Part shown: positions 17,001 through 40,398 of the stretch, in pieces | Position numbering within the stretch: the stretch's first letter is position 1 | Layout of the letters: each line of letters opens with the position of its first letter | Source of the DNA: Paramacrobiotus metropolitanus | Lineage: Eukaryota; Tardigrada; Eutardigrada; Parachela; Macrobiotidae | DNA length: 64,000 nt | Reading direction: 5' to 3' | Assembly: GCF_019649055.1 (NCBI RefSeq) | Contig: NW_026570225.1 | Coordinates: 682,001-746,000 of the forward strand | The notes under the pieces: generated by a model | Database searches by the model: none | Told to the model about the DNA's origin: nothing | Seen by the model: only the letters and a program-made list of their open reading frames with translations | Made by a program: the position numbers and the translations under genes

Positions 17001-17048
17001 ATCGACAGCTTAGTCGGGCATACCAATCAGAATACTCAAATTAGCTAA
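14003..17048 (+). CDS. Fuseless-like multipass membrane protein (first, full-length copy)
   Basis: Exons: 14003-14262, 14329-14396, 15238-15425, 15648-16020, 16129-16215, 16321-16353, 16428-16479, then a terminal exon ending at TAA 17048 that probably starts near 16611. Hydrophobic segments alternate with a recurring motif: LYWRGGFMIL, CCVWRLWDVVD, STWRGVWYLLDW, IDLWRGVWGLYDEY. This pairing is characteristic of the invertebrate fuseless family, eight-pass proteins of presynaptic terminals. The last exon encodes a hydrophilic tail with repeats (DLAHGDPCETAKL, DVAWADPDELRKL). Through exon 7 the frame is open, but the phase into the last exon fails by one base: a CC run at 16441-16442 is CCC in the second copy. 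As read, translation would end with GCWFLQNVYLFLTTSFR plus stop; with one more C it would run into the tail exon. Family identification comes from memory of the motif pattern and is moderately sure. Confidence 0.6.
14517..14621. repeat. Short tandem/inverted repeat around TTATTGCGCATT in an intron
   Basis: The word TTTTATTGCGC with TATAATTAT flanks recurs four times (about 14540, 14568, 14580, 14603), and its reverse complement GCGCAATAAAATTATA lies at 14517-14533. It sits in intron 2 of the fuseless-like gene. Confidence 0.7.
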
Positions 17049-18848
17049 AACGGTACTGACAAAATATAAAAAAACGGTACTGAACTGGTTGGTTTGGTGC
17101 CTTTGTTGTTAACCCGCTGCTTTCGTAACACTCTCGCGCCTCCTCTGGCAACCGTTTCCGATCTGACTGAAACGTTCTTCCTGATACCAACCAGATTCCG
17201 CACAAAGGTACGCATATTTATAACCGTGACCGCATATAAGAAGTGTTTTTACACGCAGCGTGTGAATCCTCTGCAACGTACTCGACAAAATTAAACTTGT
17301 ATGCCATCTACTGTACAAGTATATGTATTTTACTTGTGCAGCATATAGAACTATTCGTGAGCCACTGAGCCGTAATTATTTATTGATTATAAATTAATAA
17401 AAATCTGGTAGTTCCACTGGTAATTTCAGCGCACTAGTCGCATTGCGCACTTTCTGGATAACATCTTTTCCATGGGCATCGTAATTCCTCTGATTACCAG
17501 TACATGGCGCGGCGTGTGGTATTTACTGGACTGGCTGATCGTCTTTCCTGCGGATGTGGTGGCGCCGGAAAGACAACTGTTCTGGTCGTACATGATCTCC
17601 ACTCTATCCGGATTCGCAATCGCTGTGATTGCTGTTCTGCTACAAAACCATCTTCCGTAATTTCTGCTTATCTGGAGCAACAAGGACGATGGTTAAGCAA
17701 AATCGTATTCGAAGACATCCTAATGGCGGTAGCCACATTCGCCAGTATTGACCTGTGGAGAGGAGTGTGGGGGCTGTATGACGAATACTTTTTCCCATGG
17801 GGTACCACACTACGAATAAATTCTCATATTTATATTACTACATTACTTATGCATATAAATGTAACGCACAAGCGAAACAAAATAAAAGTCAGTGCATTTT
17901 AGTTTACAGATATTGTGACCTCAGCCTGGTTAAGTCACATCTTCGGCTTCTTTGGATTGGCGCTTATGTTCCACTCTAACTCGGCTGTGATGAAAGGTCA
18001 GCGGAGAAAACTGTATTACAATAACATGGATTTTATAGTTCACTACTGTAAGTAAAACCAAGTACGAATACTGTAAGTAAAACTCGTATACGTTTCTGTA
18101 GGGTTCCAGTACGATGGAGAACATTCTGATGGAGGTAAATAATCGATTATGAATAAAATATAGCACCATACTGTATAATCAGATTTACAACTATATTTTT
18201 GTTTTTAGCCGGATGTTGGTTCCCTGCAAAATGTTTATCTGTTTTTGACCACTTCATTCAGGTGACAAAATGTATATGATGCGATCGCACTTCTGAATAT
18301 TGCGCCAAATATTGGAATACCTGCTTGCGCTATTGCAGTACCTGACTTCGTTAAATTATAACTACAATTGACTTTGCTCTTGATCTGATTAGCCGTCATC
18401 AGATGATCCTGGCGGCGAAGGAACTGACAGTAACGACAGCGGGAATAACCAGCGCAGCAGCGCCGCTTCCTTAACACAGGCCATGGCAACTCAGCCGGTG
18501 ATAACGGTGGACGATTTGGCACACGGGGATCCCTGCGAAACGGCTAAACTGCGTCCTCTTCGTCGATCCCATAATTCTCTGCATCGACTTCCTAGTAACA
18601 GTGATATTAATGGTCTGAATGCTGATGACGTTGCTTGGGCCGATCCCGATGAACTGAGAAAACTGCGCCGGACAACATTTCGGTCGCATTATCCGCACCC
18701 CGATTTAAGCTTAATGCGCAAAACTTCCCTTATTTCCGACCGGCTTTCTCGAGCGGATCGGCTCCATACACCAATTACACCTATCGACAGCTTAGTCGGG
18801 CATACCAATCAGAATACTCAAATTAGCTAAAACGGTACTGACAAAATT
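15302..18848. repeat. Tandem duplication of about 1.77 kb, nearly identical copies
   Basis: Copy 1 spans about 15302-17066 and copy 2 about 17084-18848, offset 1782 bp. Introns, exons and the 3' end all match. By eye the only differences are two one-base length changes in short homopolymers: five A at 15862-15866 versus four at 17644-17647, and CC at 16441-16442 versus CCC at 18223-18225. The junction carries a repeated AAAACGGTACTGA, a possible microhomology. The break falls inside an exon, so copy 2 starts in mid-exon. Confidence 0.92.
17084..18830 (+). pseudogene. Headless second copy of the fuseless-like gene
   Basis: It repeats the last part of exon 3 and all later exons but lacks exons 1-2 and the start of exon 3, so it has no initiator or first membrane segments. 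The shorter A run at 17644-17647 shifts the frame and produces LLQNHLP followed by a stop. In contrast, the CCC run at 18223-18225 restores a frame joining GCWFPAKCLSVFDHFIQ to the hydrophilic tail exon. Each copy is therefore broken at a different site. It could be a recent real duplication, or one locus assembled twice with consensus errors. It might also supply alternative 3' exons to the upstream promoter. Confidence 0.7.
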
Positions 18849-19669
18849 AATGACAATTGAATATCATCAGTGAATGATGGATTTGCAATTGATGTATTCT
18901 TCTCGGTCGCATCAATGCGGAAAATTACATCTTGATATTTTGAACGAGCAGAATTTAACTGCTGATTTCAGCTAATTTATATTACACGAAAAAATTACTC
19001 CGTCATATGAACGATGATTCTCGCATTGCGCTGGTGCTGACGGACCGGAAATCAAATGCGCAGCGAATATTACAGGTGGACGCTGAGCTGACATCATTCG
19101 TTCTCCATATTCGTACAAATTATACTCGTAGCAAGGTTCGTCGTATAGCGTGCAAATCTTTCTCTTATTTATTTTGTACTGGTGTACAGATACATACATA
19201 TTTGCACGTCAAATGCACTCGTGAAACATTAAATTAAGTCCGATTTTACGATACTAAAATTCGGGGAATAAGGTTTTCATCACAGCTATTGAGATTTCCA
19301 TAAAATCCCTTTGTTTGTTAAACTTTCTTTAGAGAAGCGGTCAAACTTTTATTACGACTGACCAGTGGCCAGTGATGCGGAGGTAGTGCGGTCAGCGTGT
19401 GCCTGCAGGCGCCGTTCTCAGTCAGGTTTGGACATGCCCGTCCAGCTCACCCTTTATTCGAACTTTCCCTTAATGCATAGTTGGTCGTGCATGCTTTTCT
19501 TTTGTCCAGTCTGTCTGTCCCGACTGTGAGATCTTTCACAGCTCTTTCTTGTCCACTGTCCAACTGGAAAAGGAAGCTTTCAATCGATGCCCAGCTGGCA
19601 CTGAATTTAGACCAAGGCATGCGCTATTTGCAAGGAGTTTTCGCAAACCTGGATTAGCCACACGGCAAA
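18849..19669. other. Intergenic spacer and upstream region of the secreted protein
   Basis: The frame at 19007-19237 (+) overlaps an equally long frame on the other strand and joins no neighbour in phase, so I call no gene. The region just upstream of 19670 probably holds the promoter and 5' UTR, but I see no clear TATA box. Confidence 0.4.
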
Positions 19670-25445: not shown

Positions 25446-26059
25446 ATGGCCGAAGAGGGAGACAAAATCGATTTTGCGGAACTCGATAAGGGTGTTGGAG
25501 GGATCCCTGAACTTTCCCGCAGGACCTCACAGCCGTGTAAGTGCCAGTACTGTTCTGGTATGCAGCAGCACTGCAGCAGCCGGATGCTGTATGTTGAATC
25601 GCTGGATACGTGCGGTAGTTCAGTGGAAAATAGGGTTCAGTAATCAACGATGTCGAAAGTTGCGATCGGTACTAGTACTTTTATGTCTGATAACGAAAAA
25701 TTTGCAGACGCGCCTACTGTCGATGTACGTAAACCATTTAAAATTTCGATACTAAGTCTTGAAGTATTATTTGCGGCTCCACATCCTGCCTCTACAGAGT
25801 ATTTCAGAACCTGAGACTGAGAGCATTAAAAAGTTTAATAATTTTGGGATTCGCATTGCGCTGCTTAGAATTTCCCCCTGTACTTGCTAATTCTTTAGTA
25901 ACAGAGATACGCGTGGGAGCAAGGTTAATGGTTCCCCAGCGGATAAGCATCGAAATCGAACGAGGAAATGCGGCATCAATCTTGGGGACAGCACCGATAG
26001 GGGCAAATTTAGACCAAATTTTCTCTGTGATTAGGCCGCCTTTGTCGATTGATGCTTAA
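25446..26059 (+). CDS. Small hypothetical protein, about 83 aa, two exons
   Basis: The ATG at 25446 has a strong context (AAAATGG). Exon 1 (25446-25536) encodes MAEEGDKIDFAELDKGVGG and a short basic stretch, then meets a consensus GTAAGT donor. Exon 2 most simply runs 25899-26059, after the acceptor ATTCTTTAG, and ends at TAA. A poly(A) signal AATAAA lies at 26111-26116. An alternative donor two bases upstream (GTGTAA) would put exon 2 in another open frame, giving a hydrophilic tail NRDTRGSKVNGSPADK; I cannot tell which is used. No family is recognised. It opens the run of small hydrophilic-protein genes. The gene is likely real because start context, splice sites and poly(A) signal agree. 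Confidence 0.5.
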
Positions 26060-26110
26060 TGTGATCGTGTTTGAAGTTACTGTGAAATCTTTCTGTGAAC
26101 TGAATGTAAG

Positions 26111-26116
26111 AATAAA
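26111..26116 (+). terminator. Poly(A) signal of the small hypothetical gene
   Basis: AATAAA, about 50 nt after the stop at 26059. Confidence 0.5.
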
Positions 26117-26267
26117 TATGGTTTTATTTAACACATTAAGTTCCTTGTACTGCATATTGCTTTAGCGTAAAATCAAAAGCTGCATGGCGTAGTCCACAAA
26201 GCAGAACGAATTTGAGAAGTACGATAGTAAAACGAAATTTCTTTGGATTTAGTTTGCATGGTTTTGA

Positions 26268-26618
26268 ATGGCTTCAGATGATTACTCGGAGCAGCAACTG
26301 GAGCAGAAGACTCATCTGTCTGCCAAAGAAGATCCGCACGCTCAGGGAAAAGGCAAAGGAAAGGGCTGCGGAAAGCCGGGCTGTACATGCGACAACTGTC
26401 AGTGCGGAAGCAACTGCAAATGTGGTGAGTCGGGAGCGGGAAAGCAGCAAGGGAAAGGATGCGGAAAACCTGGATGCACTTGCGATAACTGCCAGTGCGG
26501 AACCAATTGCAAGTGTGGCGACTCGGGAGCCGGGAAGCAGCAGGGGAAGGGAAGTGGAAAGCCGGGTTGCACCTGCGACAACTGTCAGTGCGGAGCAAAC
26601 TGCCAGTGCGGAAACTGA
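26268..26618 (+). CDS. Metallothionein-like protein with three Cys-rich modules, 116 aa
   Basis: A single-exon frame. Residues 1-31 are Cys-free, acidic then Gly/Lys-rich. Three copies of GKPGCTCDNCQCGxNCKCG follow, centred near residues 43, 74 and 105, separated by (E/D)SGAGKQQGKG linkers with an exact 31-residue (93 bp) period. There are 20 cysteines: 7, 7 and 6, the third module having Ser in place of its first Cys. CxC and CxxC pairs with no aromatic residues in the modules are the signature of metallothioneins, which bind Zn, Cu or Cd as thiolate clusters. The modular design is unlike the two-domain vertebrate or nematode forms. A poly(A) signal lies at 26664-26669. Function is inferred from composition; the gene call is strong. 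Confidence 0.82.
   Translation: MASDDYSEQQLEQKTHLSAKEDPHAQGKGKGKGCGKPGCTCDNCQCGSNCKCGESGAGKQQGKGCGKPGCTCDNCQCGTNCKCGDSGAGKQQGKGSGKPGCTCDNCQCGANCQCGN
26361..26615 (+). repeat. 93 bp coding repeat, 2.7 copies, within the metallothionein-like gene
   Basis: Units starting near 26361, 26454 and 26547 repeat with few substitutions. They differ mainly at third positions and in one Cys-to-Ser change (third unit), so the modules arose by tandem duplication inside the exon. Confidence 0.85.
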
Positions 26619-26663
26619 ATGGCGCGCGGGACCTATTAGTCTGCTGCACACTTCGCTCTTTCT

Positions 26664-26669
26664 AATAAA
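26664..26669 (+). terminator. Poly(A) signal of the metallothionein-like gene
   Basis: AATAAA, 45 nt after the stop. Confidence 0.6.
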
Positions 26670-27118
26670 CGTTCTGTTGTTTTCATTCCAGTGATTTGTA
26701 CTTTAACTGTATAACTATAATCAAAATTGATCACAGGCCGATTCCTACGGAAATGGCTTGCAGTTTGTAACGTCATGAGTGAATGCATGCAGACATGATG
26801 CAGTCAGTTTTGGTGGTGGTGAAGACATACATATTTGCATTCGGTCTTGAATCGTTTAATCGAATTTCTCGTTTCCCTTTGTGTCAGTGTTTTATTGAAG
26901 TGGCAGGCAGATTATCAAAAATTTTGAAATGAACTCGTTAAATGTTATATTTTCGAACTTGCTGACTGACGGTCAGCTATAGAAGTACTGCAGTAGGGGT
27001 TCGTAAAAACTAAACTGCTGTCTGTTATTAACAAACAAGTTAACATCCATCTGAAAAAAGCTTTACGAACTTAGAACTTATCTTTATTAGCTCAAGCCAG
27101 TCTCATTAAGTGTATTTC

Positions 27119-27346
27119 TTAACAAGAACAAAGCGAATTAGGGCCAAGAGTTTCAAAAGCTAGCGGGACAAAAATGTGTCCGCCTTCAAGATAAGCGTAG
27201 TTCTGAACTGGTCCAAGTCTGGTTTTCTTGTCCTCGGCCTGGGCAGCGGTGGAATCCGCCACAACGGAAGTCGACTTGACGTGGGATGGGGCGACCGTGT
27301 CCGTGTCCACTCACTTGAGAATGGTTGAATCCGTGGATAAATTAAG
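27119..27346 (-). mobile_element. Remnant of a non-LTR retrotransposon C-terminal region
   Basis: The minus-strand frame reads HVKSTSVVADSTAAQAEDKK and then ends FVPLAFETLGP. The pattern HV..T....A..AAE.KK......F.P.A.ETLG.. is typical of the segment after the reverse transcriptase domain in many LINE-type proteins. The rest of the element is missing and a stop follows soon after, so this is a short dead fragment. Confidence 0.5.
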
Positions 27347-27769
27347 TACAGCACTTACTCGTACAGTACTCGCCAGTCGCCACATTCCACAGTCACACCC
27401 CGCGACGGCCGAGCGGCAGGCAAGTGTTTCCACTGAAACACGGTGTTTCCACGGAACCTTCAGTGTTCCGCACTCGGGTTGAGGTTGTCGGATATGTGCA
27501 GAAAGCTAGGGTAGAAACTAGAGCAAACACCGCAATCTCTACAGTCTACAGACTCTACATACACTAGACTTGTACAATTCAAGGCTTTTTCAGTTTTTTT
27601 TTGTTTTTAATGGAAGTGTTATAAAGTTTTCTAAAGGTTGTGAACTTATGTGTGAACATAAAAGAGGTGGATAGCTTTGTTTATTCTAGTAGGTCCGGAC
27701 TTCAGCGACGCACGGTAATTTTATACAGATACAGAAGGTAAGCCGTAAGAACTAAGAATGTTCAGCGAA

Positions 27770-27818
27770 CGAACGTTCAGCCATTTTATCTGTAACAGAT
27801 AAAATGGCTGAACGTTCG
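27770..27818. repeat. Perfect 23 bp inverted repeat with a 3 nt loop
   Basis: CGAACGTTCAGCCATTTTATCTG (27770-27792, given in two parts here: CGAACGTTCAGCC then ATTTTATCTG) is followed by TAA and its exact reverse complement at 27796-27818. It would form a very stable hairpin in DNA or RNA. No gene surrounds it. Confidence 0.9.
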
Positions 27819-27970
27819 TGTGCTTCGACTTTGTTATGAGATTTTTAACAGCGAAATAATTATTATTGTATAACTTATGAATTATGGACGATTTCCAGGT
27901 TAGCAGTTACAACTTAGCACTATAATTTCCCTTAATGCAATTACAGCGTTCTGACGGGTGTGGAGATTGT

Positions 27971-28042
27971 CGAGTGGGAGTGGGGTTCAGTAAAAATTAG
28001 ATTTATTGAATGAAGGTTTTTATTGAACCTCGTTCCCACTCG
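27971..28042. repeat. Imperfect inverted repeat of about 26 bp
   Basis: CGAGTGGGAGTGGGGTTCAG at 27971 pairs with the reverse complement CCTCGTTCCCACTCG region ending at 28042, with a roughly 20 bp AT-rich loop. It may be the terminal repeat of a tiny decayed element. Confidence 0.6.
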
Positions 28043-29363
28043 ACTGTCTTCCAAATTTTGGGAAGACCGCTGGTAGCACTAAATGTAAAGCCAAGACCAA
28101 CTGTAGCCCTCAAGCGGGCAGGCATCTCATTAATCTAAATATTCTCAGCATCAGATTCAGACATGTTATACGGTGTCACCAGCTTGATCGTTGCGGGTAT
28201 AATGTTGTAATTAATAATAATTATGAAGTGAAGAATACTGAGCGATCTGTTTCCGTATAAGGATATCAGGGCAAAGAGCAGAAGAAATTTTCTCCAGATT
28301 TTGGAAACTGCCGGTGTATGAAATTAATATTTGTTGGAAATTGAACATACCTAACCATAAGCACTTTAGCAGCTCATGACTGCATGGAAACATCCATCTT
28401 CGTTTACTGCAACTTCTATTTCTTGTGTGCTGTAGGCAGTACCAGTATGTATCTGTAAACTGTAAAGGTGGCAAAATGACAGTGCTTGATTTCGCTGTTT
28501 TTCTTGGAGGCGGAATGTAATACAGCACTGAGGGTTTATGAATTATGTCAGCCATGGATAAATACTTTTTACTTAATTTTCTGTTGAAATTTGCAGTGTC
28601 ATTAATTGTACGAGTAGCTCAGATTAACGGTTTAAAAAACAGTCACAGGTTTTCTAAGAAAGTAAAAGATGTCATGAATTACCTCATATCAAAGCTCTGT
28701 TTTTTTAATTAGATCCGGTTTAAGTTTCGTGTATAGAATTCGTAAACAATCGATAATAAAACATGGTTTAAATAAAACCGTTTAACCACTTTACCGGTTT
28801 AAAAAGCAATATTTGTTGGGCTAAAAGTTATTGGAATCAGAATGATGTGTGTGAATTATGTAGCATGATTCTCGTCTAAGTTCAATAACTGTTATATGCG
28901 TATAGATATGTCATATGTGATAATTATGACAATTTTTAATTCAACCATTTCAGTTTGTGTGCCTGAAGAAAAAAGTTTGGTTTGGGCATGCTCATGCTGT
29001 TTTCACTTCAGATGATTTTTTAGTTTGAGATCAGAAGAGTCACTGTAGCTTAAATAAAACATTTGCCAGGTCGCTTTACTGACTAACAAGAAGTCCAGTA
29101 CTGTACTGTACAAATACACAGTACAATACATACTTCAGTACTCATAATAAACTGAATTATTATAAACCTTCGGTTATAATTAAACTTTACAAGGTTGCAA
29201 ACTTGTGTTCCTAGAGATCATAGTTATTCATTTCAAATTCAGCATTTATCAGTTCAGGTTTTTCGTTTTTTTAGAAGTGCGTCACTAAGCGAAGTAGCAG
29301 TCAGTGGAATTTCCCTTTAGAATTTCAGGATTTTACTTTGATTGTTTACTTCTACAGTTAATA
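28043..29363. other. Gene-poor spacer
   Basis: The 114-residue minus-strand frame at 28211-28555 has no recognisable domain and no splice partner; I do not call it a gene. A pyrimidine-rich acceptor (CTTCTACAG, ending 29357) precedes the next start, so a noncoding exon of that gene may lie here. Confidence 0.4.
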
Positions 29364-29690
29364 ATGGCTACTCCCGCTAAATGCCCGGACGGACAGCGGA
29401 TTGGAGAGCAAGTGTTCAGCCCGGCTTCTTCTAATAAGCAAGCAGAGAGCAGCCACTCTGGTAGCGGACGTGTGGGAGGTGATGTGGTCGTAGAGGATCG
29501 CATCGCACAGCGCGAAGAAGATCTGGGGCAACCGGTCCAACTGCGGGATCCGGTGACGGAGAGCGCTACACAGGGCGACAGCCTGTTGGACAAAGTCAAG
29601 CAGAAAGTGGATGGTGTGGTGGAGACTTTGACGGGAAGTACGGTTGATGAATTGGTGCAGGGACAGCGCGGGCATTCGAAGAAAGATTAA
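29364..29690 (+). CDS. Small hydrophilic LEA-like protein, 108 aa
   Basis: A single coding exon with ATG at 29364 in the context AATAATGGC, directly after a likely 5' UTR splice acceptor. The protein is very hydrophilic, rich in Gly, Ser, Gln, Asp, Glu and Val, with one Cys near the N-terminus. The middle is acidic and probably disordered. Residues about 74-98 (GDSLLDKVKQKVDGVVETLT) form an amphipathic helix with alternating Lys and Val/Leu, like group 3 LEA or apolipophorin-type helices. No formal family match is claimed. It lies in a run of genes for disordered proteins, so a stress-protection role is possible but unproven. Confidence 0.65.
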   Translation: MATPAKCPDGQRIGEQVFSPASSNKQAESSHSGSGRVGGDVVVEDRIAQREEDLGQPVQLRDPVTESATQGDSLLDKVKQKVDGVVETLTGSTVDELVQGQRGHSKKD

Positions 29691-30772
29691 TCCGTACTCC
29701 GTAGCAAAGTGCTTCCATGGCCTGCAGAATTCGCATTGAGAATGCTGCTTTTTGGAACTGCCGTATTAGCTATGTTGCTGTTCGTTTGTCTCAGCTCGAA
29801 TTCCTGCACAAATTCCTTTTCGCTAATGCCTCCGAGACTATCGAATTTTCTCACTAGATTGTGAACTGCAGATTTTTTTCAGTTGACCCTGAATTTGCAC
29901 CGAGATATGGTTGATTAAATCTGTGATTGGCAAACTGCAGTGGTTTTTTATGGGTTCAGTGCGAGAACTTTGCACTTCCGCTTTATTATGTCTACTTAGA
30001 ATAGCCGACGGAATCCGCATTTTTTTTCGATTGGAGGAAAATCGAGATTTCCCCGCTGTTTTCAAGAGTGAAGTTGCTAGATGCTGAACTCGCTACTTTT
30101 ATTCAATAAACTATCGATCAAAAAGGTTTTATTTTGCTATCGTACATGCTGGCAGCTTTCAGTTCATTGTCACAATCAAAACTCCCGCGTTACAACAGAT
30201 GCCGGAAGTCGTAACTTGCAAGTAACGATATCCTGCTTCTTCCGCTCGCGAAAATCACTCACTTTTGGTGCTTGGGTTTTCCCTGTAGTGTTTCAAGCGA
30301 GATTTGGTTCTTTTGTGAAAGCATTCGGATTTTCCCGAAGCCATATTTATCATAAGGAAAATCCATCACATTGAACGGTTCGGTGATGTTAATCGTACAA
30401 TCATACACTAGTGGCTACTGCTCCAAAATACAGTACAATTCAGACTTTCAGAGTCTCCATACGGTAGCTCATCCATGGTGGCATATACAGTATCTTTGGC
30501 TGCTGCCCACACTTTGCAAAGGGCACAAAATGAATGGGAAATTCCATAAATAATAACACGGACATTTTTGTTTGTTGTTATTGTACGTCGGCTCGGCGTA
30601 CACTTGTATCAATTGCACAGCACCCATTGCCACCCAATACCTTCTGCCTGATCCGAGGTATACGGTGGGTGCAAGCGAGCCCTCGGCAATTGGCTGATTC
30701 TTATACTCCAGTTTAGTGCGTGTCTACCGAGTACGGGCACGCCCAAAGCAGAGTTCAGTCAACGGTGTACGG
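29691..30772. other. 3' UTR and promoter region
   Basis: Holds an AATAAA near 30105 that may end the preceding transcript. The frames here are unsupported. The last 100 bases lead into the TATA box of the next gene. Confidence 0.4.
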
Positions 30773-30780
30773 TATAAAAG
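30773..30780 (+). promoter_or_regulatory. TATA box of the first disordered-protein paralogue
   Basis: The block GGTATAAAAGCCGACCG stands 108 bp before the ATG at 30881. The same core GGTATAAAAGnCCGA precedes the paralogue at 35091. Confidence 0.7.
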
Positions 30781-30880
30781 CCGACCGTAGCTGTCCTTGT
30801 ATACCATGTTTCGATTTTTGCAATTTACAAAGTGCACAGAATCTTCGAAATTTTTTTCGTTTCCGTGAGAGTGATTTAAA

Positions 30881-32091
30881 ATGTCTACTACTAAGGATAC
30901 TGAAAATACTACCTCTACCTACGTCCGCTCGTCTGACGCTGACAAGGACAAGACGACAGGCAAGAAGGACACAACGAGCACGAACAAGGACACTACAAGC
31001 AGCAGCACCCATCAGGACGACACAACCAGCTACGCATCGTACAACCGCGGCACCACAGGCACTACCGGAACCAGCACCCAGAATCAGCAGCATGGCCGCT
31101 ATGGGCAGGATTACGATACCAGCAGCAGCACTCAGCAGTATCGTGGAACGGCTGGAACCGCTGGCGCCATGAATCAACAGGAAGTGCAGAGCAAGCTGCG
31201 CGAGGTGGGCAACCTGCTGCAGCGTGCTGGCCAACTCCTTCAGGATCTGCAAGTGTCCGCCGGAGGTCAAGGAAGCGACTACCAGTCTTACGGTCAGCAG
31301 TATACGGGACGCAGCCAGGGAGGAAACTATTCTGGGGTGAGTTACCGAAAATGTAATTTTCACGGTACTGCAATAAATCTTTACTTTCCAACCTCAGTAA
31401 ATGGTAAACCGCTCATATTATGATTTTTGAATTATTCGTACAGATTTCAGAATAAGTTTTTTGATTTGTCACTGCATAATCAGCTAGCTGATGTGTTTTT
31501 TTATGGCTGCATTTCTCGCTTAAAATATGTTTTCAGCTTTTCATGGCTGAGCGCTGCTCTTAAGGCTTGGTACAGTATAATAGTTTCGATAGATAAAACG
31601 TAAGTTCTCTGTATTTTATCGGCCGGCAATCGTTTTGTTTTATCTTTAACAGCCATATGGCGGATTTGAATCTCACAGTCAACAGTATCGTCAGCTGCAT
31701 GGCGGCAATCAGTTCGGCGATGAATACAGCGGTCGTTATGGACAGCAGCAGCAGTTCGGTGGCCGTTCTGAGCGTGATACCGATCGCGACCGTGAATACA
31801 ATCGAGGTGAGATCTTCTTTCAGTTAAATATTCACCAGACAAAGTTCGATAAGGCCGGAAGTGTTATCGCTGATGTGGACGACTGGACGTAAATTACAAC
31901 GGCTGTACTAAATAGAACTTAATTTTAAAGGGCGCTTTGAAGATCGTGACCGATTCGGTGGTAACCGAGATGTGGATCGTTTTGGTGGTTTCGGTGGCCC
32001 AAACCGTCCCGATCTGGCGTATGGTGGACGCTATGAGCGTGGAGAGACGTTTGTGCGTGACAGCGACCGCGATCGTCGCAACTGGATGTAA
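30881..32091 (+). CDS. Intrinsically disordered Thr/Gln/Arg/Gly-rich protein, 256 aa
   Basis: Three exons (30881-31336, 31653-31806, 31931-32091) close in phase to 257 codons including the stop. Residues 1-60 are Thr/Asp/Lys/Ser repeats (KDTTSTNKDTTSSSTHQDD). There follows a Gly/Gln/Tyr segment, then one helical patch (EVQSKLREVGNLLQRAGQLL, residues about 105-125), and finally an Arg/Asp/Tyr/Gly-rich tail with DRDRF, FGGxNRD and a closing RDRRNWM. There are no cysteines and no signal peptide. The composition predicts disorder apart from the single amphipathic helix, as in heat-soluble stress proteins or RNA-condensing RGG-type proteins. It is clearly related to the gene at 35091 in its tail and promoter. 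A poly(A) signal is at 32169-32174. No named family is recognised. Confidence 0.8.
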
Positions 32092-32168
32092 ATGACCCGA
32101 GTGCGATCCAGTGATTCCATTCGAATTTCCATTCTCATTTTTTATTTGTGGTGTTATGGTCACAGTGA

Positions 32169-32174
32169 AATAAA
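32169..32174 (+). terminator. Poly(A) signal of the 256-residue disordered protein
   Basis: AATAAA, 78 nt past the stop at 32091. Confidence 0.6.
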
Positions 32175-33347
32175 TTCTTTATCGTTTGTTTATTAAATGT
32201 TGCGTGCTCGTTTGAAGTCGTTTCTATTCAATGCTGTGCTAATATTATTGTGAGGGGGCAGTGCATTAGTTATGCTTTTGTGAGTAAACTGAAATTATCT
32301 TTGACCGTGAACAAGAGGTATTAAAGATCAATAGATACTGATAAACAGATTTAGTACGGTAGTTACTAACAGGAAGTAATGCATTAGGAAAGATGAAACT
32401 TGTTCAGTACCTTATGTTAGTCGCGAAAACGAAATAAACTACCGTTAATGCGAGAAAAGTGATTTCCTTGTTAGTGGTGGATATGTGTAACCGTTATGTG
32501 AAATTGGCTATAACAGAAATGATAAATAGGTATAATTATTATATGAGTAACAGATACTATAACAGGCATGAGTATACAATGTTGGTGCGAGTATAGTAAG
32601 TTCAGTACATAAACACAGACGTACGATATTATTAAATTTTTATACTTCTATGTACATAATAATATGTGGTGCACGTAATATAGTATGTGGTGGCAGTGAG
32701 CTCGCTGATGTAGTACCTGACAACCTGTGGATTCTGGCTGTTTGATTCTGAGTTTTTTGTTAGTCTTTGTTAGTCTCTTTGTTTGCTAGGTTCGCAAATG
32801 TCGTAAAATCATCTGAATTGTGAGTTGTTTTCAATTTTCGTTTCAAATTTTGCCTTTTCTGATTTTGGAATTTGTTCGTTATATTATATATATTTTACCC
32901 AAATTCACCAAAACCTAAGATTTTAAAATATTTTATAATCTAATAAAATCATTCGAAGAAAAACCGGCCGTAGGCCACAAGAAACGCGGAGACAAAGCCG
33001 CTGCGGTTTCCTGTAACTACCTAGGGCCACTCCCGCTACGGGTATAATATTGTACCTATTTCGCTGTTTATGAAATCCATGAACTATGAAGGCATGTCGC
33101 ACCGCAAGAGCATTCCATTCCTGGCTCACTTAAATCATAAATTCGGGAAATCTTGATTTTCTTGTTTCTCCACTTCTGGTACATGCTTGAAAGATTAATT
33201 CACTATGTCTTGCTTTGCTGATCCTCTATTACGATAAACGCTTACTATACTGTGCATCTGCGAAAATATTGCACTCTAAAGTTCAAAGTACTGTATGTCT
33301 ATTGTCTGCAGCTATATACTTTGTATACGAGTATAAACTATGAAATA

Positions 33348-33379
<32 letters not shown>

Positions 33380-34976
33380 AATTTTTATATCAAGGAAACA
33401 CATCTATATTATGAGCTCTCTTATTCTGATAGATATTACACTTGCATCTCGTGCAACTCACTGACAGGCTTTTTTGAAAATGAACTCTTTATCAGCGATT
33501 CACTAATTGATCAAGTTCGCAATCGTTTCTGAAAGGGCAATCACAATTACATGACAAACTAACCTTGTTTTGTTACAGCGTGTCGTGCAGCAAAAATTGT
33601 AAGCAAAATTCTTAAAAAATCAAATAAAAAAAGTCGCATTAATTTATCACAAAGTGCAATTTCCGCTCAGCCCATCCAGCGCACACACTATGTCAACGAC
33701 TTCACTTTTTATTGAAAAACGATGTCTTTCTCTGAACAAAAAAGGTGTAAGCACTTGAAGTACTGAAGTGTTTCGTACGGTAAACCATTGACGCGAGCTT
33801 CTGTGTTTTGTGAGCTGGGGCAAAATTAATTTTTACATGATTTTAATAAACGCTGGAATTAATAAGGACGTCTTGATTTCTAAAATAAGTTTAATTGTTG
33901 CTTGTAGGCCTGTAGCTAATGAAAATTTTTATCGAATGAATCTAACAAGTTCACATTGCGGCAAACCGCTCATGAGAAACAGGTAAAAATCGGAGAGCGA
34001 TATCTGCCACCCGGTTCCCGGCATATGTGAATGCCGGTAGAACAAAATCAAGAAACCAAGAAATAACAAAACCAAGAAAAACATTTTTGTAAAAAGTGCG
34101 ATAGCTTTTATCTTATTTTGGCCGTTCCTCAGTGTGGAAATTTTAACTTTTGTCGCTTTATAACCTTGACAATGACCTTGTTTACAAACACATCGGCAGA
34201 CAACAATATCATAGAGCAAGTAAATATTGCCAATTCGGCTGCAGCACCTGGAAATGGATGTGCCCTCAGTACCCGCCATAACCTAAATAAATAAGTAATG
34301 AACAGAGATCTCTCATGACGTACTGTGTACGACTGTAAGAGTTTGAAGGATTGCAGTTCTACAGTGTCAATTATTAAGTGCAGTTATAATTTTTTCCAGG
34401 TACAATATCTGTACTCAACAATCATTTATCATTTTGTTTCGCTTGCAACTTCATCGTTCATTTACGTGCCTAAAGTGGTGTTTACTGTTTATTAACTGTA
34501 ACGAGGGTAGCAACGCCAGTAATTTTGTTGCATTCCCAGATTCAAGGAAATCAAGTTGCGACGATGAGAATGCAATAATATATTACTAACGATTGGCGAA
34601 TAACTGTTAGAGGTTCACCTGGACAAAAAGGCAACAAACTGCCCTGAACACAGCTGGGAATCTTCCGTTCACCGATCCAACCAAGGACAGCTCATCGGTA
34701 TTGTTCCGAATGGACCGGTGCCTCGATTTCAGACGTCTGATAGCGCCGCGCCGGCTTCTGTGAACAGCTCGGCACATGGACAACACGAAAGAACTCAACT
34801 GTATTAACTTCAACCGGTCTTGTTTGTACGTACTTACCTATTGTACATAATACGCATAATAATGCAGTGCGTACAGTACTGTACTTTCAATCTACAGCCA
34901 GTGAAGGGGAGGCTGGACCGAGCACGCCCTCAGCTATTCTCGCTGTCATCGATTTGGAAAATCCCTGCAATCTGGG
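32175..34976. other. Long gene-poor AT-rich spacer
   Basis: About 2.8 kb. The minus-strand frame at 33929-34279 (116 aa) contains a strongly hydrophobic stretch (MFFLVLLFLGFLILFY) and could be an exon of an unrecognised membrane protein, but it has no partner exons. The frame at 34607-34813 (-) is equally unsupported. A TA-dinucleotide run lies at 33351-33381. Confidence 0.4.
33351..33381. repeat. TA-dinucleotide microsatellite
   Basis: An almost uninterrupted TA run in intergenic DNA. Confidence 0.85.
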
Positions 34977-34984
34977 TATAAAAG
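34977..34984 (+). promoter_or_regulatory. TATA box of the second disordered-protein paralogue
   Basis: The block GGGTATAAAAGACCGAGACG stands 114 bp before the ATG at 35091, almost the same spacing and sequence as the block at 30773. Confidence 0.7.
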
Positions 34985-35090
34985 ACCGAGACGAGCTAGC
35001 AGACCAGCACCATTGTTTGAGTCTAAGATTTCCTGCAAAAGATTTTCGTTTTTCTTCAAAACGTATTTATCTGTGTATAACCCAATCAAC

Positions 35091-36294
35091 ATGTATCAGC
35101 GATCGGAATATACTTACCGCCGTGATGACGATCACGACCGGGATCGTGAAGGAGGATGGCGCTCATGGTTCGGAATGGGAAAGAAGGATGATGACCGTGA
35201 CGTGAGTGATAATTTGCTTGCGTAGAACAGGAGCATATTTTAAACGTTGCAATTCTTCTGTTGGAGCAGCTTTTACTTCCTCGTAATTATTGAAAAATTC
35301 CAAATTTTTTATACTGTAGTATCACTACGCCCGCACCACTACCTACCGCAACGACGACCGCGACTACAACCGTGACTATAACGTTAACCGCGATTACAAC
35401 CGTGACCGTGATTATAATTACAACAATACGACGCGCACCAACACGTATGTCCGTGATGATGACCGTGACCGTGGATTCGGCGGACGTCTGGGCACTGACT
35501 ATCGCGGAGGATATGGTTACCAGACCAGCGGCGAGTACAACCGCGGCTATGGCGGATACGGCACCAACTATGATCGTAAGTATAAAGTAACGCTAACTGT
35601 ATTAAATTATGGAAAACGGAAATAAGTTTGATTCAGCTCTAAAAAGAGTGCTTTGAACTTTTGCGGTTTAAGTTTTCTGACGGTAATTATAGCAATTTTA
35701 AACCAGATAAATTTGAAGACACTGATGGTTTCCCAGGTTCACCGTTGGCGTTTATGGTTTTACTAACATTCCTGAAGTAACCCGGCCCGCTAATTGTGGG
35801 CTGGTGGCAGTACTTGTATTATAATTTTATGGTTTATGATAATATTTATGGTTGATGTGCACTGATTGGTTTATCGCTTCGAAGGTGACAATCGCGGATG
35901 GTCCAACACTACCACCACTTACGATCGTGATCGCTATGATGGAAACCGCTACACAACTGGCGGAGAGGCAACTGCGCGTGGCGGCTATTACAGCAGCAGC
36001 TCTAATAACTGGGATCGTCCAACTTACGGTGCCGATAACTACACTAGCCGCAATTATGGCGGATACGGCAACAACGATCGCGACAACACTCGCGGTAAGT
36101 AGCTTTACAATGATAAGAAATTATAAAAATTCAAAAATTTGATTTTTATTATTGAGAAGGCCAAGCCGATTTTTTGCAAATCTTGGAAGTTGTAGTAAAG
36201 GTCCCAACGGGACTACGAAAAGCGTCGGGATTAAGATTTTTATTGCTTCCCTTTGTTTGCAGGTTATTCTTATACCAGCCGTACCAACTGGTAA
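35091..36294 (+). CDS. Intrinsically disordered Arg/Asp/Tyr/Asn-rich protein, 202 aa
   Basis: Four exons (35091-35201, 35320-35575, 35885-36094, 36263-36294) close in phase to 203 codons including the stop. The protein is dominated by DRDYNRDYN-type repeats, Thr/Asn clusters and GGYGxNYDR units, with a short aromatic patch WRSWFGMGKK near residue 28 and the ending YTSRTNW. There are no cysteines, signal or membrane segment. It shares the R/D/Y/G repeat style, the Asn-Trp C-terminus and the promoter block with the gene at 30881, so the two are probably diverged paralogues. Such sequences are expected to be disordered and heat-soluble or to phase-separate; this is inference. A poly(A) signal lies at 36516-36521. 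Confidence 0.8.
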
Positions 36295-37399
36295 ATTTCT
36301 CTTTCTCCTGTGAATCATCCGGATGTGCTGATTTTCCGCTCGTTTCTTTAATTCCATATTGGGACAGATGTTCTTTAACTTATCGTTGAATCTGCGCTTG
36401 GTTCAAGGTTCTGGTTGTCTTTATTTTTTAACGCTTTATTTGTCTGATCTTTTTCAACACAGCAGTTCTAATGTTGTGGTGGCGGTTTTGTGGCTTCACT
36501 TAAAGTGACGAATTCAATAAAGAATCGCTTTAAATTACCTGTGGGGAATCAGTAGTCTGCAGGAAACAGAAATTGACGTGTACTAGTGGATAAACATACT
36601 GTGCATATTAATAAAGTCATATAATTATGGTGCGGTACTTACGTTAGGTAAGTTCGACAGGAACAAAGATCGTAAAAATCTGGTGCCTTACTATGATATC
36701 AGCCCTGAGGAGATTAAAATTCTGCAGATTAAAATTTGAATTTTGATATATCTATTATATAGGTGTATAGTATGCTATCGATTTCCCCCTATATATAGTA
36801 TAAGGTACAATACTCTGTGTGCATGCCGCAGTAATGGCAGAAACCGTACCCGGGTATCTTTTCATATGTACTTACAGTACATGCCAGTTGCTGAAGCAGC
36901 GATAATTTGTATAATATAATCTGCATAAGTACTTTCATACTGCTTACATAGCGTGAAGTCGTGAACCAGATTATAAAATTATTACACTTTACAATAATGT
37001 CATATGTCATATGCATTGCGAGTTTGCGACTCATATTGGTATGATGTACGGCAGGTGTGGTACTGGCACAGTTCTTATTGATTTCCATTTCAACTTTCAA
37101 CCCAGCGGAAGTAAAAGCCGTCGTTGGGACTTTTCCATTGCTTCCGTTGAAGCTGTATTTGCTTCGGTAAATCGCTTCCTGGTTGGTGCGTATGTTTTTG
37201 TGTTGTAATTTCAGTGACACCATACAGATATACGGTATCGTGAAATTCAGATGAAAGATTATATTTAAAGTGCAAACCATTGGTGTCTGTTAAAAGCACA
37301 ATACATATTTGGTAAATATTGTTTTGCTTCTACGTGAAAGCAAAATAGTCGTAGCGTACATTTCTGTTATTTGGACTATCCTAGGACGCTAAAGAAATC
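36295..37399. other. 3' UTR and spacer
   Basis: AATAAA at 36516-36521 probably ends the preceding transcript. No supported gene: the 163-residue minus-strand frame at 36789-37280 has no recognisable domain and random-looking composition. Confidence 0.4.
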
Positions 37400-37735
37400 A
37401 TGGATACGGCACATGGTGGATTCGACAGTTCAAAAGGAGCAGGTGGGTCAGCAAAAGAAAGTGGGGATAATGTGAAGCAGGATTTATCCCAGCGTCAGGA
37501 GAATATGTTCGATAACCAGGCAGACAACCAGGCCAAAGATGTGCGCCTGGATCAGGGAAATGCTTCCTTTCACGCAGACAACGCAGGCCATGCCGTTCAT
37601 ACTGCAACGTGCGAGCATGGCAGGGAAATCCCTCCGCTCCACGATGAAGGGTTTGGGGCAGGTGGAAGCGTGCAAGACGCACAGAAGCAGGTGCGTCCAC
37701 TGTCCAGTGAGCAGTTTCACGGGTTACAGACTTAG
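37400..37735 (+). CDS. Small hydrophilic protein, 111 aa
   Basis: A single-exon frame with start context AATCATGG. It is rich in Asp, Asn, Gln, Gly, Ala and His: GAGGSAKESGDNVKQDLSQR, then DNQADNQAKDVRLDQGN, then a His-rich middle with one Cys. It has no hydrophobic core or signal peptide, so it is probably disordered. The DNQADNQAKD repeat looks like the 11-mer style of LEA proteins but is too short to assign. It belongs by composition to the neighbouring run of hydrophilic proteins. A candidate AATAAA lies near 38035. The function is unknown. Confidence 0.6.
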   Translation: MDTAHGGFDSSKGAGGSAKESGDNVKQDLSQRQENMFDNQADNQAKDVRLDQGNASFHADNAGHAVHTATCEHGREIPPLHDEGFGAGGSVQDAQKQVRPLSSEQFHGLQT

Positions 37736-39126
37736 AGATACCTTTCCGAGTTCTTCGTTTATTGTGATAATATGGCTTCTGATCCGCGGTGGAAATGAAT
37801 GCAGTACCGTGTTCCCCATGGGCACGGTACTGCGAACGCGAGTATTCTTTCTGAAGTCGTAAGATAATGTCTGCAAAGTTATATTAATAAGTTATTTAAT
37901 TTATACAATTTTAATTATTAAATGAAACTTCTGTGTTTGTTTCGTTAGCCGTAGGCCCGTAACGTATTAGTCAGCTGCGATTTAATACAAAAGTAATTCC
38001 AAGTTTTTAACCCTTATTTTCCCAAACGATATAAAATAAAGAATGATGGCAGGTTATATCCAGTTTTTATCCAGCGTATTACTGTGGTTTACCTTGCTTG
38101 TTTCCGGTTTATGAGTACATAATTCTAAACATAGAACTTTGTCTTATAATTTCTTATGTCGACCTTTCTAATACTATGCATTTCCTGATTGATTACCGCA
38201 GTTGACTTGTTATTATTACCATTCCACTATAGTATTGTTATTTGTTCTTTTCACTACCTACTACTGATGGTGAGTAGCACGAGTGCTGTACAAGGGGAAC
38301 ACGATATCGCGCAAAATATCCTCCCTGTAGTGCCGCTCCAGTCATCCGCCTTGAATCAGTCCCATGAGTTTCGCGTCATGGCTGCAAATGCATGATGTCC
38401 AAACAGCCCGCAGCATCTCGATGGAGGAAGCAGTACAGGAAACGTAACTGTACAGGGTAGATCAGTTGGCAGCTGGGTTGCTTGTGCTTGCAAAGGAAAG
38501 TTCAGGAAATAACAGGCAGTTACAGAAGATTGTCGGATTGAGCAGAGCTGGGGACAGGTGTACAGTACGCTCTACACAATGCTCACTTCCGAGTCCCGAC
38601 CGGAAGTCGGGAAGTGTTCTTTACTTACCTCGGTTGACTTGCAAGTGCCTGTGTCGAATGGCGATATAGTAATAATAGTACTAGCGGTGGTTGTTAACCA
38701 CATCATTTGCAACCTCAGCGTGACAGCGCGCGTGCAATATCACTGGAAAATTTTATTGGATTTGAGGAACTGGAAAACAGTTATACTACGCACTTCGAGG
38801 GGTCAGGCGAATTTCTGCTCTTGACGAAAGCTTGTTAACGATATTGCAGCATGTCGCTGCGTTTGATGCAAAATATAGAATTATACATGATAAAGCACTC
38901 GTGTATGTGTTTTATTTTTATGTATTTAGTAGGCAAAGTTGCACAAGATATGAGCTTTCATAATTTTTCAAAAAATTGACTGGGACTGTTTGTTTATTTT
39001 TCGAACTGCCAAAAACTAGTCAATTACAAAATGGTTTTGTTCTGATTTCCGGTAGGGACGGACAGTCTGATTCGTCGAGCAGCATTCTGATAAGGAAATA
39101 ATGATTAAAATTGCACTTCTCTTCAG
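37736..39126. other. Spacer, possibly with an unseen first exon of the next gene
   Basis: The next protein lacks an obvious start codon in its exon, so its first coding exon probably lies here as a very short piece that I could not place. The frames at 38189-38395, 38466-38669 and 38558-38824 lack other support. Confidence 0.35.
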
Positions 39127-39410
39127 CTCGGGATGAGAAGCGGAACCAAGCCTTGATAGGAGAGCCGTTCATCACCGGCTCGAATCCCGCCAGCGGGCAG
39201 TTGTTTGAAGGAGCTCCTAATCCACCGCCGCAAGAGCCTGGAGCGCACAATTCGGGGGAGAAGCCTATTGCATTGGGTGGGGAATACGACAGGGATTTCG
39301 CGAAACCTTCGGGAGAGCTGGATTTTGACGCGGAGCACGGACATAAGACAGACATCCCGTGGGACAGTGGTCAGGGATCGGGCTTCGACAAAGACTGGCA
39401 GTACAAGTGA
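39127..39410 (+). CDS. Small hydrophilic protein, last exon (start not located)
   Basis: An open frame follows the acceptor TTCTCTTCAG and runs to TGA at 39410, giving about 94 residues beginning ARDEKRNQALIGEPFITGSN. It is rich in Gly, Pro, Asp, Glu and Ser, with a Pro run (NPPPQEPG) and an acidic/aromatic tail (DIPWDSGQGSGFDKDWQYK). No Cys, signal or membrane segment. The incoming phase is 1, so a first exon with the ATG is needed upstream. AATAAA repeats near 39496-39510 would end the transcript. No family is recognised; the coding call rests on the acceptor, open frame and codon character. Confidence 0.55.
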
Positions 39411-40121: not shown

Positions 40122-40398
40122 TAGTAGCTGTAGTCGCTAATCGCTATGTTATTTCACAAGAAGATAACTATCTTATCTATATAACGTCGTTATAGTTATC
40201 TTCTTGTGAAATAACATATTTCACAATAACTTATTTCACAAATAACATATTTCTTGTGAAATAACATATTTCACAATAACATATTTCACAAATAACATAT
40301 TTCTTGTGAAATAACATATTTCACAAGAAGATAACTATAACGTCGTTATAGTTATCATCTTGTGAAATAACATAGCGAGTCAGCGACTACAGCTACTA
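40122..40398. mobile_element. Foldback/MITE-like element with nested repeats
   Basis: The left end TAGTAGCTGTAGTCGCT followed by CGCTATGTTATTTCACAAG is mirrored at the right end (CTTGTGAAATAACATAGCG ... GCGACTACAGCTACTA). Between the arms are several direct and inverted copies of CATATTTCACAATAACA and TTCTTGTGAAATAACATATT. GTAGCTGTAnGACTA also repeats just outside the left end. There is no coding capacity. No clear target-site duplication was found, so the class is open. Confidence 0.65.

What the first reader, a model, noticed from the sequence alone, without database searches (positions are those of the whole stretch)
25446..39410. Run of small disordered or hydrophilic protein genes on one strand
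Seven plus-strand genes in 14 kb encode short, very hydrophilic products without a recognised family: an 83-residue protein, a Cys-module protein, an LEA-like helix protein, two R/D/Y/G-rich paralogues and two Asp/Gly/Gln-rich proteins. No globular-domain gene interrupts them. Co-localised heat-soluble proteins are a feature of desiccation-tolerant animals, and none of these match the CAHS, SAHS or MAHS patterns I know. This could be a new set of stress-protection proteins. The sequence shows the gene run and composition; the role is inference.
Basis: partly seen in the sequence, partly recalled or inferred. Interest (0 to 1): 0.8.

Follow-up and report, generated by a model that had tools for sequence, protein, structure and literature searches.

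The report
Small hydrophilic-protein gene run, metallothionein-like gene
In a tardigrade genome, a 14-kb stretch holds a cluster of five or six small, mostly very water-loving protein genes, among them what looks like a metal-binding metallothionein; they match no known family here, but nothing yet shows that they act together in stress survival.

Summary
The run is real in outline but smaller and more mixed than described. The genome is a tardigrade's, probably Paramacrobiotus metropolitanus. Of seven claimed genes, five regions look coding by sequence tests (g2, g3, g4, g5, the g7 exon); g6 is borderline and g1 at background. g7 has no start codon; its best-scoring first exon is the first 43 nt of g6, so both may be one gene. 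The 'paralogues' g4 and g5 are not alike beyond composition. Five of seven products pass the compositional hydrophilin test. Such ORFs are over-represented: 3 of 12 ATG-ORFs of at least 100 aa here, 2 of 85 in 160 kb of control DNA; by hydrophilicity alone the excess is weaker (4 of 12 against 10 of 85). No Pfam or NCBIfam model matches any product above cut-off. The Cys-module protein is most likely a metallothionein: modules kept despite near-saturated synonymous change. g7 shares a 50-residue block with a gene on another contig; g5 has partial copies on two. No CAHS match was found on this contig. Best reading: unrelated, apparently lineage-restricted hydrophilic proteins beside a metallothionein-like gene. 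A co-regulated stress set is possible but untested.

The parts
25446..25890 (+). g1, doubtful gene. Exons 25446-25536, 25660-25724, 25798-25890, 82 aa; or a single-exon 65-aa ORF 25446-25643
   Evidence: Open spliced frame, one of 4 open among 18 tried splice combinations; the first acceptor lacks a pyrimidine tract; synonymous codon usage at background (26% of noncoding windows as high). No other match in the genome at E<=1.
26268..26618 (+). g2, metallothionein-like gene, one exon, 116 aa, three 31-residue modules (the last one truncated) with C-x4-C-x-C-x2-C-x-C-x3-C-x-C (first Cys is Ser in the last module)
   Evidence: Tandem repeat at 26353-26603. Between modules pS 0.71-0.86 and pN 0.03-0.11. 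Only match in the genome at E<=0.1. No Pfam or NCBIfam match at E<=1, no PDB sequence at E<=10.
29364..29690 (+). g3, one exon, 108 aa, N-terminal part without confident structure and one C-terminal helix (residues 70-102)
   Evidence: Coding-like synonymous codons (0 of 4078 noncoding windows as high). Single-sequence AlphaFold2 helix 70-102, pLDDT 80-85 for residues 71-90, 67 for 91-100. Only match in the genome at E<=10.
30881..32091 (+). g4, three exons (30881-31336, 31653-31806, 31931-32091), 256 aa: T/S/Q/G-rich part, one helix (residues 99-127), R/D/Y/G-rich tail
   Evidence: GT-AG introns of 316 and 124 nt. Coding-like codons. AlphaFold2 of exon 1 only: helix 99-127, pLDDT about 95 for residues 101-120; blocks outside 91-130 at 44-54. 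No other copy; one chance-level match at E 0.44.
30772..30780 (+). TATA-like box GTATAAAAG 108 nt (counted from TATAAA) before the g4 ATG
   Evidence: Four STATAAAAG sites in the window against 1.6 expected; 9 of 100 shuffles have four or more. Two of the four sit upstream of g4 and g5.
34976..34984 (+). TATA-like box GTATAAAAG 114 nt (counted from TATAAA) before the g5 ATG
35091..36294 (+). g5, four exons (35091-35201, 35320-35575, 35885-36094, 36263-36294), 202 aa, R/Y/D/G/T/N-rich, GRAVY -2.05, net charge zero
   Evidence: GT-AG introns of 118, 309 and 168 nt. Coding-like codons. Partial copies on C10 (end of exon 2, three exon-3 copies at 94-95%) and C30.
37400..37735 (+). g6, one-exon ORF, 111 aa; its first 43 nt (37400-37442, then GTGGGT) may instead be the first exon of g7
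   Evidence: borderline codon usage (4.9% of noncoding windows as high; one antisense frame scores higher, 0.23 against 0.005); donor CAG|GTGGGT in the phase g7 needs. Only match in the genome at E<=10.
39127..39410 (+). g7, terminal exon coding about 94 aa after a good acceptor (TTCTCTTCAG), no ATG in frame; C-terminal block shared with a gene on C6
   Evidence: 24 of 50 residues identical, 56.2 bits against at most 18.9 in 100 shuffles; pS 0.96 and pN 0.26 over 26 codons.

Best explanation
The stretch is a cluster of about five genes without recognised family (g2, g3, g4, g5 and g6/g7) that mostly encode hydrophilin-type proteins, one of them metallothionein-like. They are not one family. 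Shown from sequence: coding character, module and motif conservation, hydrophilin composition, one predicted helix each in g3 and in the first exon of g4. Inferred: g2 binds soft metals (Cu(I), Zn(II), Cd(II)) through CxC clusters, one per module, and so buffers metal and quenches oxidants. Inferred: g4 and g5, nearly or exactly net-neutral chains rich in Arg, Asp, Tyr and Gly, stay soluble and flexible in water and form weak multivalent Tyr-Arg contacts that favour a gel or condensate when water is lost; g3 and the g4 helix fold or bind in crowded or membrane-bound states. Each would act alone as a cytosolic protectant. The neighbourhood may reflect a permissive stretch between larger genes rather than a regulated unit.
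For: Hydrophilin test met by g2, g4, g5, g6 and g7, five of seven (criteria as quoted in PMC7448490, passages). Excess of such ORFs over control DNA, 3 of 12 against 2 of 85. g2: pS 0.71-0.86 against pN 0.03-0.11 between modules. g7: block shared with the C6 gene, pS 0.96 against pN 0.26. g5 against its copies: pN/pS 0.33-0.64 in the in-frame comparisons. No Pfam or NCBIfam model above cut-off for any product. A charge-hydropathy test calls six of seven disordered, not g1. AlphaFold2 gives one long helix each in g3 and in g4 exon 1. Genome is tardigrade: 20 CAHS-like matches on 12 contigs, none on C5.
Against: No expression, heat-solubility or metal-binding data. g3 and g1 miss the hydrophilin cut-off. 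By GRAVY alone the excess is modest: 4 of 12 against 10 of 85. One control stretch (L040) carries three long hydrophilic ORFs in a row, one of them hydrophilin-like, so the background is not zero. The codon score does not tell the strand: one antisense frame of g2, g4, g6 and g7 scores as high as or higher than sense. The g5 ratios rest on few differences and on incomplete copies. Mean TOP-IDP values (0.03-0.23, lowest for g5) were not calibrated. AlphaFold2 was run on single sequences, and only for g3 and g4 exon 1. No metal-response core TGCRCNC lies in the 500 bp before g2. Lineage restriction is inferred from missing family matches; no other tardigrade genome could be searched.
Confidence: 0.5

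Rival explanations
1. A co-regulated stress locus: the genes are switched on together on drying, heat or metal load and their products act as a set of protectants.
For: Same strand; no Pfam-matching ORF above cut-off among the 20 gap ORFs scanned; hydrophilin excess; GTATAAAAG boxes 108 and 114 nt before the ATGs of g4 and g5; a metallothionein-like member; a GAANNTTC pair 34 and 42 nt before the ATGs of g2 and g4.
Against: No shared ancestry among the members. Scanned stress elements upstream are not clearly above chance, and no three-unit heat-shock element occurs there. No CAHS match on this contig. The GTATAAAAG box precedes only two genes; an extended box shared by both is not supported; g1 and g3 have a TATAAA 203-307 nt upstream, g2, g6 and g7 none within 400 nt.
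Confidence: 0.2
2. Fast-evolving orphan genes of mixed, ordinary roles (for example RNA- or cytoskeleton-binding tails, or germline products) that collected by chance between larger genes; only g2 has a stress role.
For: g4 and g5 resemble each other in composition only; partial g5 copies on C10 and C30 show turnover; g7 is a relative of a gene on C6 whose product begins MGNHESS, a possible myristoylation start (recalled motif, not tested); dispersed repeats sit in the stretch.
Against: The hydrophilin-ORF density is about 17 times that of the control DNA (3 per 14.1 kb against 2 per 160 kb).
Confidence: 0.35
3. Part of the run is over-reading: g1 is noncoding, and most of g6 is intron of a two-exon g6/g7 gene or an alternative form of it.
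For: g1 codon usage at background; best-scoring first exon for g7 is 37400-37442 (ad hoc donor score 9.0 of 10.5; the five other candidates listed score 6.5); one antisense frame of g6 scores higher than its sense frame.
Against: The implied intron (about 1.7 kb) is longer than the five introns of g4 and g5 (118-316 nt); g6 alone reads 111 codons with a hydrophilic product, and its part after the possible exon end scores slightly better than the whole (3.0% of noncoding windows as high).
Confidence: 0.5

Closest known systems
Metallothioneins; in tardigrades the EST cluster 'Metallothionein superfamily (Type 15 family./Thioredoxin like)' of PMC2768748 (section 5 read)
   Same: Cys-rich, small, CxC motifs, no aromatic residue in the modules.
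   Different: Spacing CxC-x2-CxC-x3-CxC in three tandem modules; no Pfam or NCBIfam model at E<=1. Whether g2 belongs to that EST cluster could not be tested (no sequences at hand). A search of the Echiniscoides sigismundi transcriptome found no metallothionein (PMC5328964, passages).
Hydrophilins / LEA-like proteins (criteria as quoted in PMC7448490, passages)
   Same: Gly above 6% and hydrophilicity index above 1 for five of seven products.
   Different: No Pfam match for g1, g2, g3, g4, g6, g7 at E<=1 and only a weak DUF6695 match for g5, so no LEA model; no induction data.
CAHS proteins of tardigrades
   Same: Hydrophilic, disordered (recalled), encoded in the same genome.
   Different: A CAHS query finds 20 matches on 12 contigs, none on C5.
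Tardigrade-specific TDR1 and TRID1 (PMC11233135, PMC13389832, PMC13407396; passages)
   Same: Tardigrade-specific; TDR1 is short (146-291 aa), TRID1 is described as disordered.
   Different: Not compared: no sequences of TDR1 or TRID1 were at hand.
Novel hydrophilic proteins of the drying bdelloid rotifer Adineta ricciae (title seen in a reference list)
   Same: Unnamed hydrophilic proteins in an animal that survives drying.
   Different: No sequence compared; paper not read (a search listing of other papers only).

Membership tests
Metallothionein (g2) | Small, Cys-rich, repeated CxC motifs, few aromatics | tested here: met
   116 aa, 17% Cys, three modules with CxC-x2-CxC-x3-CxC; one Tyr, outside the modules.
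Metallothionein (g2) | Match to a curated metallothionein model | tested here: not met
   0 families at E<=1 in Pfam and NCBIfam; 0 PDB sequences at E<=10. The superfamily is polyphyletic (recalled), so g2 is called metallothionein-like and filed under no metallothionein family.
Metallothionein (g2) | Binds Cu, Zn or Cd in thiolate clusters; often metal-induced | not testable with these tools
   No biochemical data; no TGCRCNC core within 500 bp upstream of g2.
Hydrophilin | Gly >6% and hydrophilicity index >1 | tested here: met
   g2, g4, g5, g6, g7 meet it; g1 and g3 do not.
Hydrophilin | Accumulates under water deficit | not testable with these tools
   No expression data.
LEA protein (g3) | Match to a LEA family model | tested here: not met
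   No Pfam family at E<=1.
LEA protein (g3) | Amphipathic helix in an otherwise disordered chain | tested here: inconclusive
   Helix 70-102 in a single-sequence AlphaFold2 model; hydrophobic moment 0.49, reached by 5% of 1000 shuffles.
CAHS | Sequence homology to CAHS | tested here: not met
   A CAHS query (recalled sequence) has no match on C5 among 20 matches from 40 scored candidates.
SAHS / MAHS | Sequence homology | not tested
   Only Pfam and NCBIfam were scanned.
TDR1 / TRID1 / Dsup | Sequence homology | not tested
   No sequences at hand.
g4-g5 paralogy | Similarity beyond composition | tested here: not met
   37.4 bits; 6 of 100 shuffles reach it; neither finds the other in genome searches at E<=1. 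A blastp-short run without composition correction gave E about 1e-7, which the shuffle control explains by composition.

The most novel reading that the evidence does not exclude
A dedicated drying-survival locus of macrobiotid tardigrades that couples a tandem-module metallothionein with condensate-forming, net-neutral R/D/Y/G polyampholytes and single-helix protectants: metal and oxidant buffering and water-loss gelation encoded side by side, independent of CAHS.
Probability: 0.13. Interest if true: 0.75.

Novelty: new member of a known kind. Interest (0 to 1): 0.4.

Why it matters
Tardigrade tolerance is mostly credited to CAHS, SAHS, MAHS and Dsup. If the hydrophilic products here are induced on drying, they widen the list of candidate protectants with proteins that family searches miss. 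A metallothionein gene with no second copy found would give tardigrades a testable metal-buffering gene. If nothing is induced, the locus is a useful warning that hydrophilic orphan genes can cluster without a shared role.

Tried and rejected
Heat-shock, metal-response, antioxidant, CRE and ATF-like patterns in the 500 bp upstream of g1-g6 (g7 has no start): nothing clearly beyond chance; one TGCRCNC before g4, GAANNTTC once each before g2, g4 and g5. Extended shared TATA box GTATAAAAGNCCGA: 4 matches with up to 2 mismatches against 1.5 expected, g4 not among them. Rfam on 22-42 kb: 0 matches at gathering score. Relatives of g2 in prokaryote genomes: 42 pattern matches, none confirmed. g3 as a chemosensory protein: one PDB sequence at E 0.0077 (best domain 0.051), the only PDB match up to E 10, no Pfam family at E<=1; taken as chance. 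PDB matches of g4 exon 1 (E 0.86) and g5 (E 0.65), and none for g6 and g7: nothing usable; g1 was not searched there. Weak family matches far below cut-off: g5 to DUF6695, g1 to a transposase model, g3 to argP. C6 exon as ribosomal uS17: PDB E 0.6, NCBIfam E 0.06, below cut-off. g4 and g5 as paralogues: not supported. The C30 copy of g5: exon 1 lacks the start and has a stop in frame. In one search one exon-2 comparison was out of frame and was redone. Paper searches: six terms for novel disordered Gly/Tyr-rich tardigrade proteins gave 0 papers; four terms for a tandem seven-cysteine metallothionein gave 1, on ferroptosis. Of the 12 papers holding 'tardigrade' and 'metallothionein' (listing), passages of three were seen and section 5 of one.


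Full report
Organism. The window is G000:C5:682001-746000 of a 169.8-Mb assembly in 533 contigs. Contig C1 is 4,484,719 bases; the published Paramacrobiotus metropolitanus assembly has a longest scaffold of 4.48 M (PMC11191345, passages) and 13 CAHS orthologues (same paper, section 19 read), and its genome is given as 170 Mb (PMC9224920, passages). I take it to be that species; no name was given.

Gene models. I rebuilt the genes from the sequence. g2, g3 and g6 are single ORFs of 116, 108 and 111 codons. g4 has three exons (256 aa) and g5 four (202 aa), with GT-AG introns of 118-316 nt. g1 needs two introns with a poor first acceptor (four of 18 tried combinations read to the same stop), or is a 65-codon ORF. 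g7 is an exon of about 94 codons with a good acceptor but no start codon. Among ATG-started exons up to 400 nt in 36.3-39.1 kb, in the phase that g7 needs, the best donor is at 37442, inside g6 (ad hoc score 9.0 of 10.5; the five others listed score 6.5). So g6 and g7 may be one gene; the intron would be about 1.7 kb, longer than those of g4 and g5.

Coding tests. A synonymous-codon score was trained on 2042 codons of 13 flanking conserved or long ORFs; 12 of 13 score above zero when left out. Fraction of noncoding windows as high: g1 0.26, g2 0.0035, g3 0 of 4078, g4 0 of 3062, g5 0 of 3434, g6 0.049, g7 0.0034. The score does not tell the strand: the best antisense frame of g2, g4, g6 and g7 gives 0.08, 0.15, 0.23 and 0.11 against 0.078, 0.148, 0.005 and 0.102 for sense. 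Sense is backed by splice sites (g4, g5), by the tandem modules (g2) and by the C6 relative (g7). More than half of the noncoding set is the gaps of this same region.

Is it more than chance? ATG-ORFs of at least 100 aa with GRAVY <= -0.7: four in the region, all on +, against a mean of 0.005 on + in 200 Markov simulations. Against real DNA the excess is modest: 4 of 12 here, 4 of 38 in the rest of the window, 10 of 85 in sixteen 10-kb control stretches. With the hydrophilin cut-offs (Gly >6%, index >1, as quoted in PMC7448490, passages; the ORF count used index >=1) it is clearer: 3 of 12, 0 of 38 and 2 of 85, Fisher p 0.013 against the controls; 11 of 85 against 16 of 915 for stop-to-stop ORFs of at least 60 aa gives 4e-6. 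Overlapping frames are not independent, and the region was chosen after the fact. Control L040 holds three long hydrophilic ORFs in a row.

g2, metallothionein-like. Three modules in tandem, Cys spacing C-x4-C-x-C-x2-C-x-C-x3-C-x-C, the first Cys replaced by Ser in the last, which is also shorter. Between modules pS is 0.71-0.86 and pN 0.03-0.11: synonymous sites are near saturation while the protein stayed nearly the same, which means strong constraint since an old duplication. It is the only match in the genome at E<=0.1. No family model or solved structure matches, which is common for metallothioneins (recalled). A 2009 survey lists a tardigrade cluster of 84 sequences as 'Metallothionein superfamily (Type 15 family./Thioredoxin like)' (PMC2768748, section 5 read), so a tardigrade metallothionein is not a first; a search of the E. 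sigismundi transcriptome found none (PMC5328964, passages).

g3. 108 aa, only match in the genome at E<=10. AlphaFold2 on the single sequence gives one long helix, residues 70-102, and a short one at 63-66. Its hydrophobic moment is modest (0.49; 5% of shuffles reach it). No LEA model matches. A lone PDB match to a mosquito chemosensory protein (E 0.0077) looks like chance.

g4 and g5. Both are R/D/Y/G-rich with net charge near zero (g4) or zero (g5) and GRAVY -1.55 and -2.05. AlphaFold2 of g4 exon 1 gives one confident helix, 99-127, in an otherwise low-confidence chain. No other g4 copy was found; one chance-level match had E 0.44. g5 has partial relatives: on C10 the end of exon 2 and three exon-3 copies at 94-95%, on C30 an older copy whose exon 1 lacks the start and has a stop. 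Nonsynonymous to synonymous ratios for g5 against them are 0.33-0.64 in five distinct in-frame comparisons, all on few changes, whereas one C10 copy against the other two gives 3.16. The best-alignment score of g4 with g5 is reached by 6 of 100 shuffles, so the word paralogue is not earned. Each has GTATAAAAG 108 or 114 nt before its ATG; the window has four such boxes against 1.6 expected (9 of 100 shuffles have as many), and a longer shared box is not supported.

g7 and the C6 gene. g7 shares 24 of 50 residues with a 172-aa product on C6 that begins MGNHESS and has no Pfam family at E<=1. The score is 56.2 bits against a maximum of 18.9 in 100 shuffles of g7. The shared block ends in a DS.QGSGFD.DWQY motif, unnamed as far as I know.

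Surroundings. Of ten flanking ORFs scanned, five matched Pfam: aldo/keto reductase, GST, Fuseless, chromodomain and leucine-rich repeats. Twenty gap ORFs had no match above cut-off. Dispersed repeats lie at about 25932-26118 (40 further matches among the scored candidates) and 27140-27302 (24 further matches).

Verdict. A real, moderate enrichment of hydrophilic-protein genes, with one metallothionein-like gene and several orphans, and no evidence of one family or shared control. The protective role is plausible for single members and untested for the set.

Noticed in passing
15519-17069 and 17301-18850: Tandem duplication of at least 1.55 kb at 99.8% identity within the Fuseless-like gene (the comparison was cut at 17301, so it may be longer); recent event or assembly artefact.
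   Followed up: partly
25932-26118: Dispersed repeat with 40 further matches in the genome at 81-97% identity, just downstream of g1.
   Followed up: no
27140-27302: Second dispersed repeat, 24 further matches at 66-80% identity.
   Followed up: no
27769-27819: Inverted repeat, 98% identical to its own reverse complement.
   Followed up: no
40201-40333: 50-bp tandem repeat array, 2.7 copies, 96% matches.
   Followed up: no
L019 4424-5589 (minus strand): C6 gene for a 172-aa product that begins MGNHESS (possible myristoylation start, recalled motif), no Pfam family at E<=1, sharing the QGSGFDxDWQY block with g7.
   Followed up: partly
L020 3622-5189 (minus strand): Three tandem copies of the g5 third exon and the end of its second exon on C10; two exon-3 copies are identical over the compared 62 codons.
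   Followed up: partly
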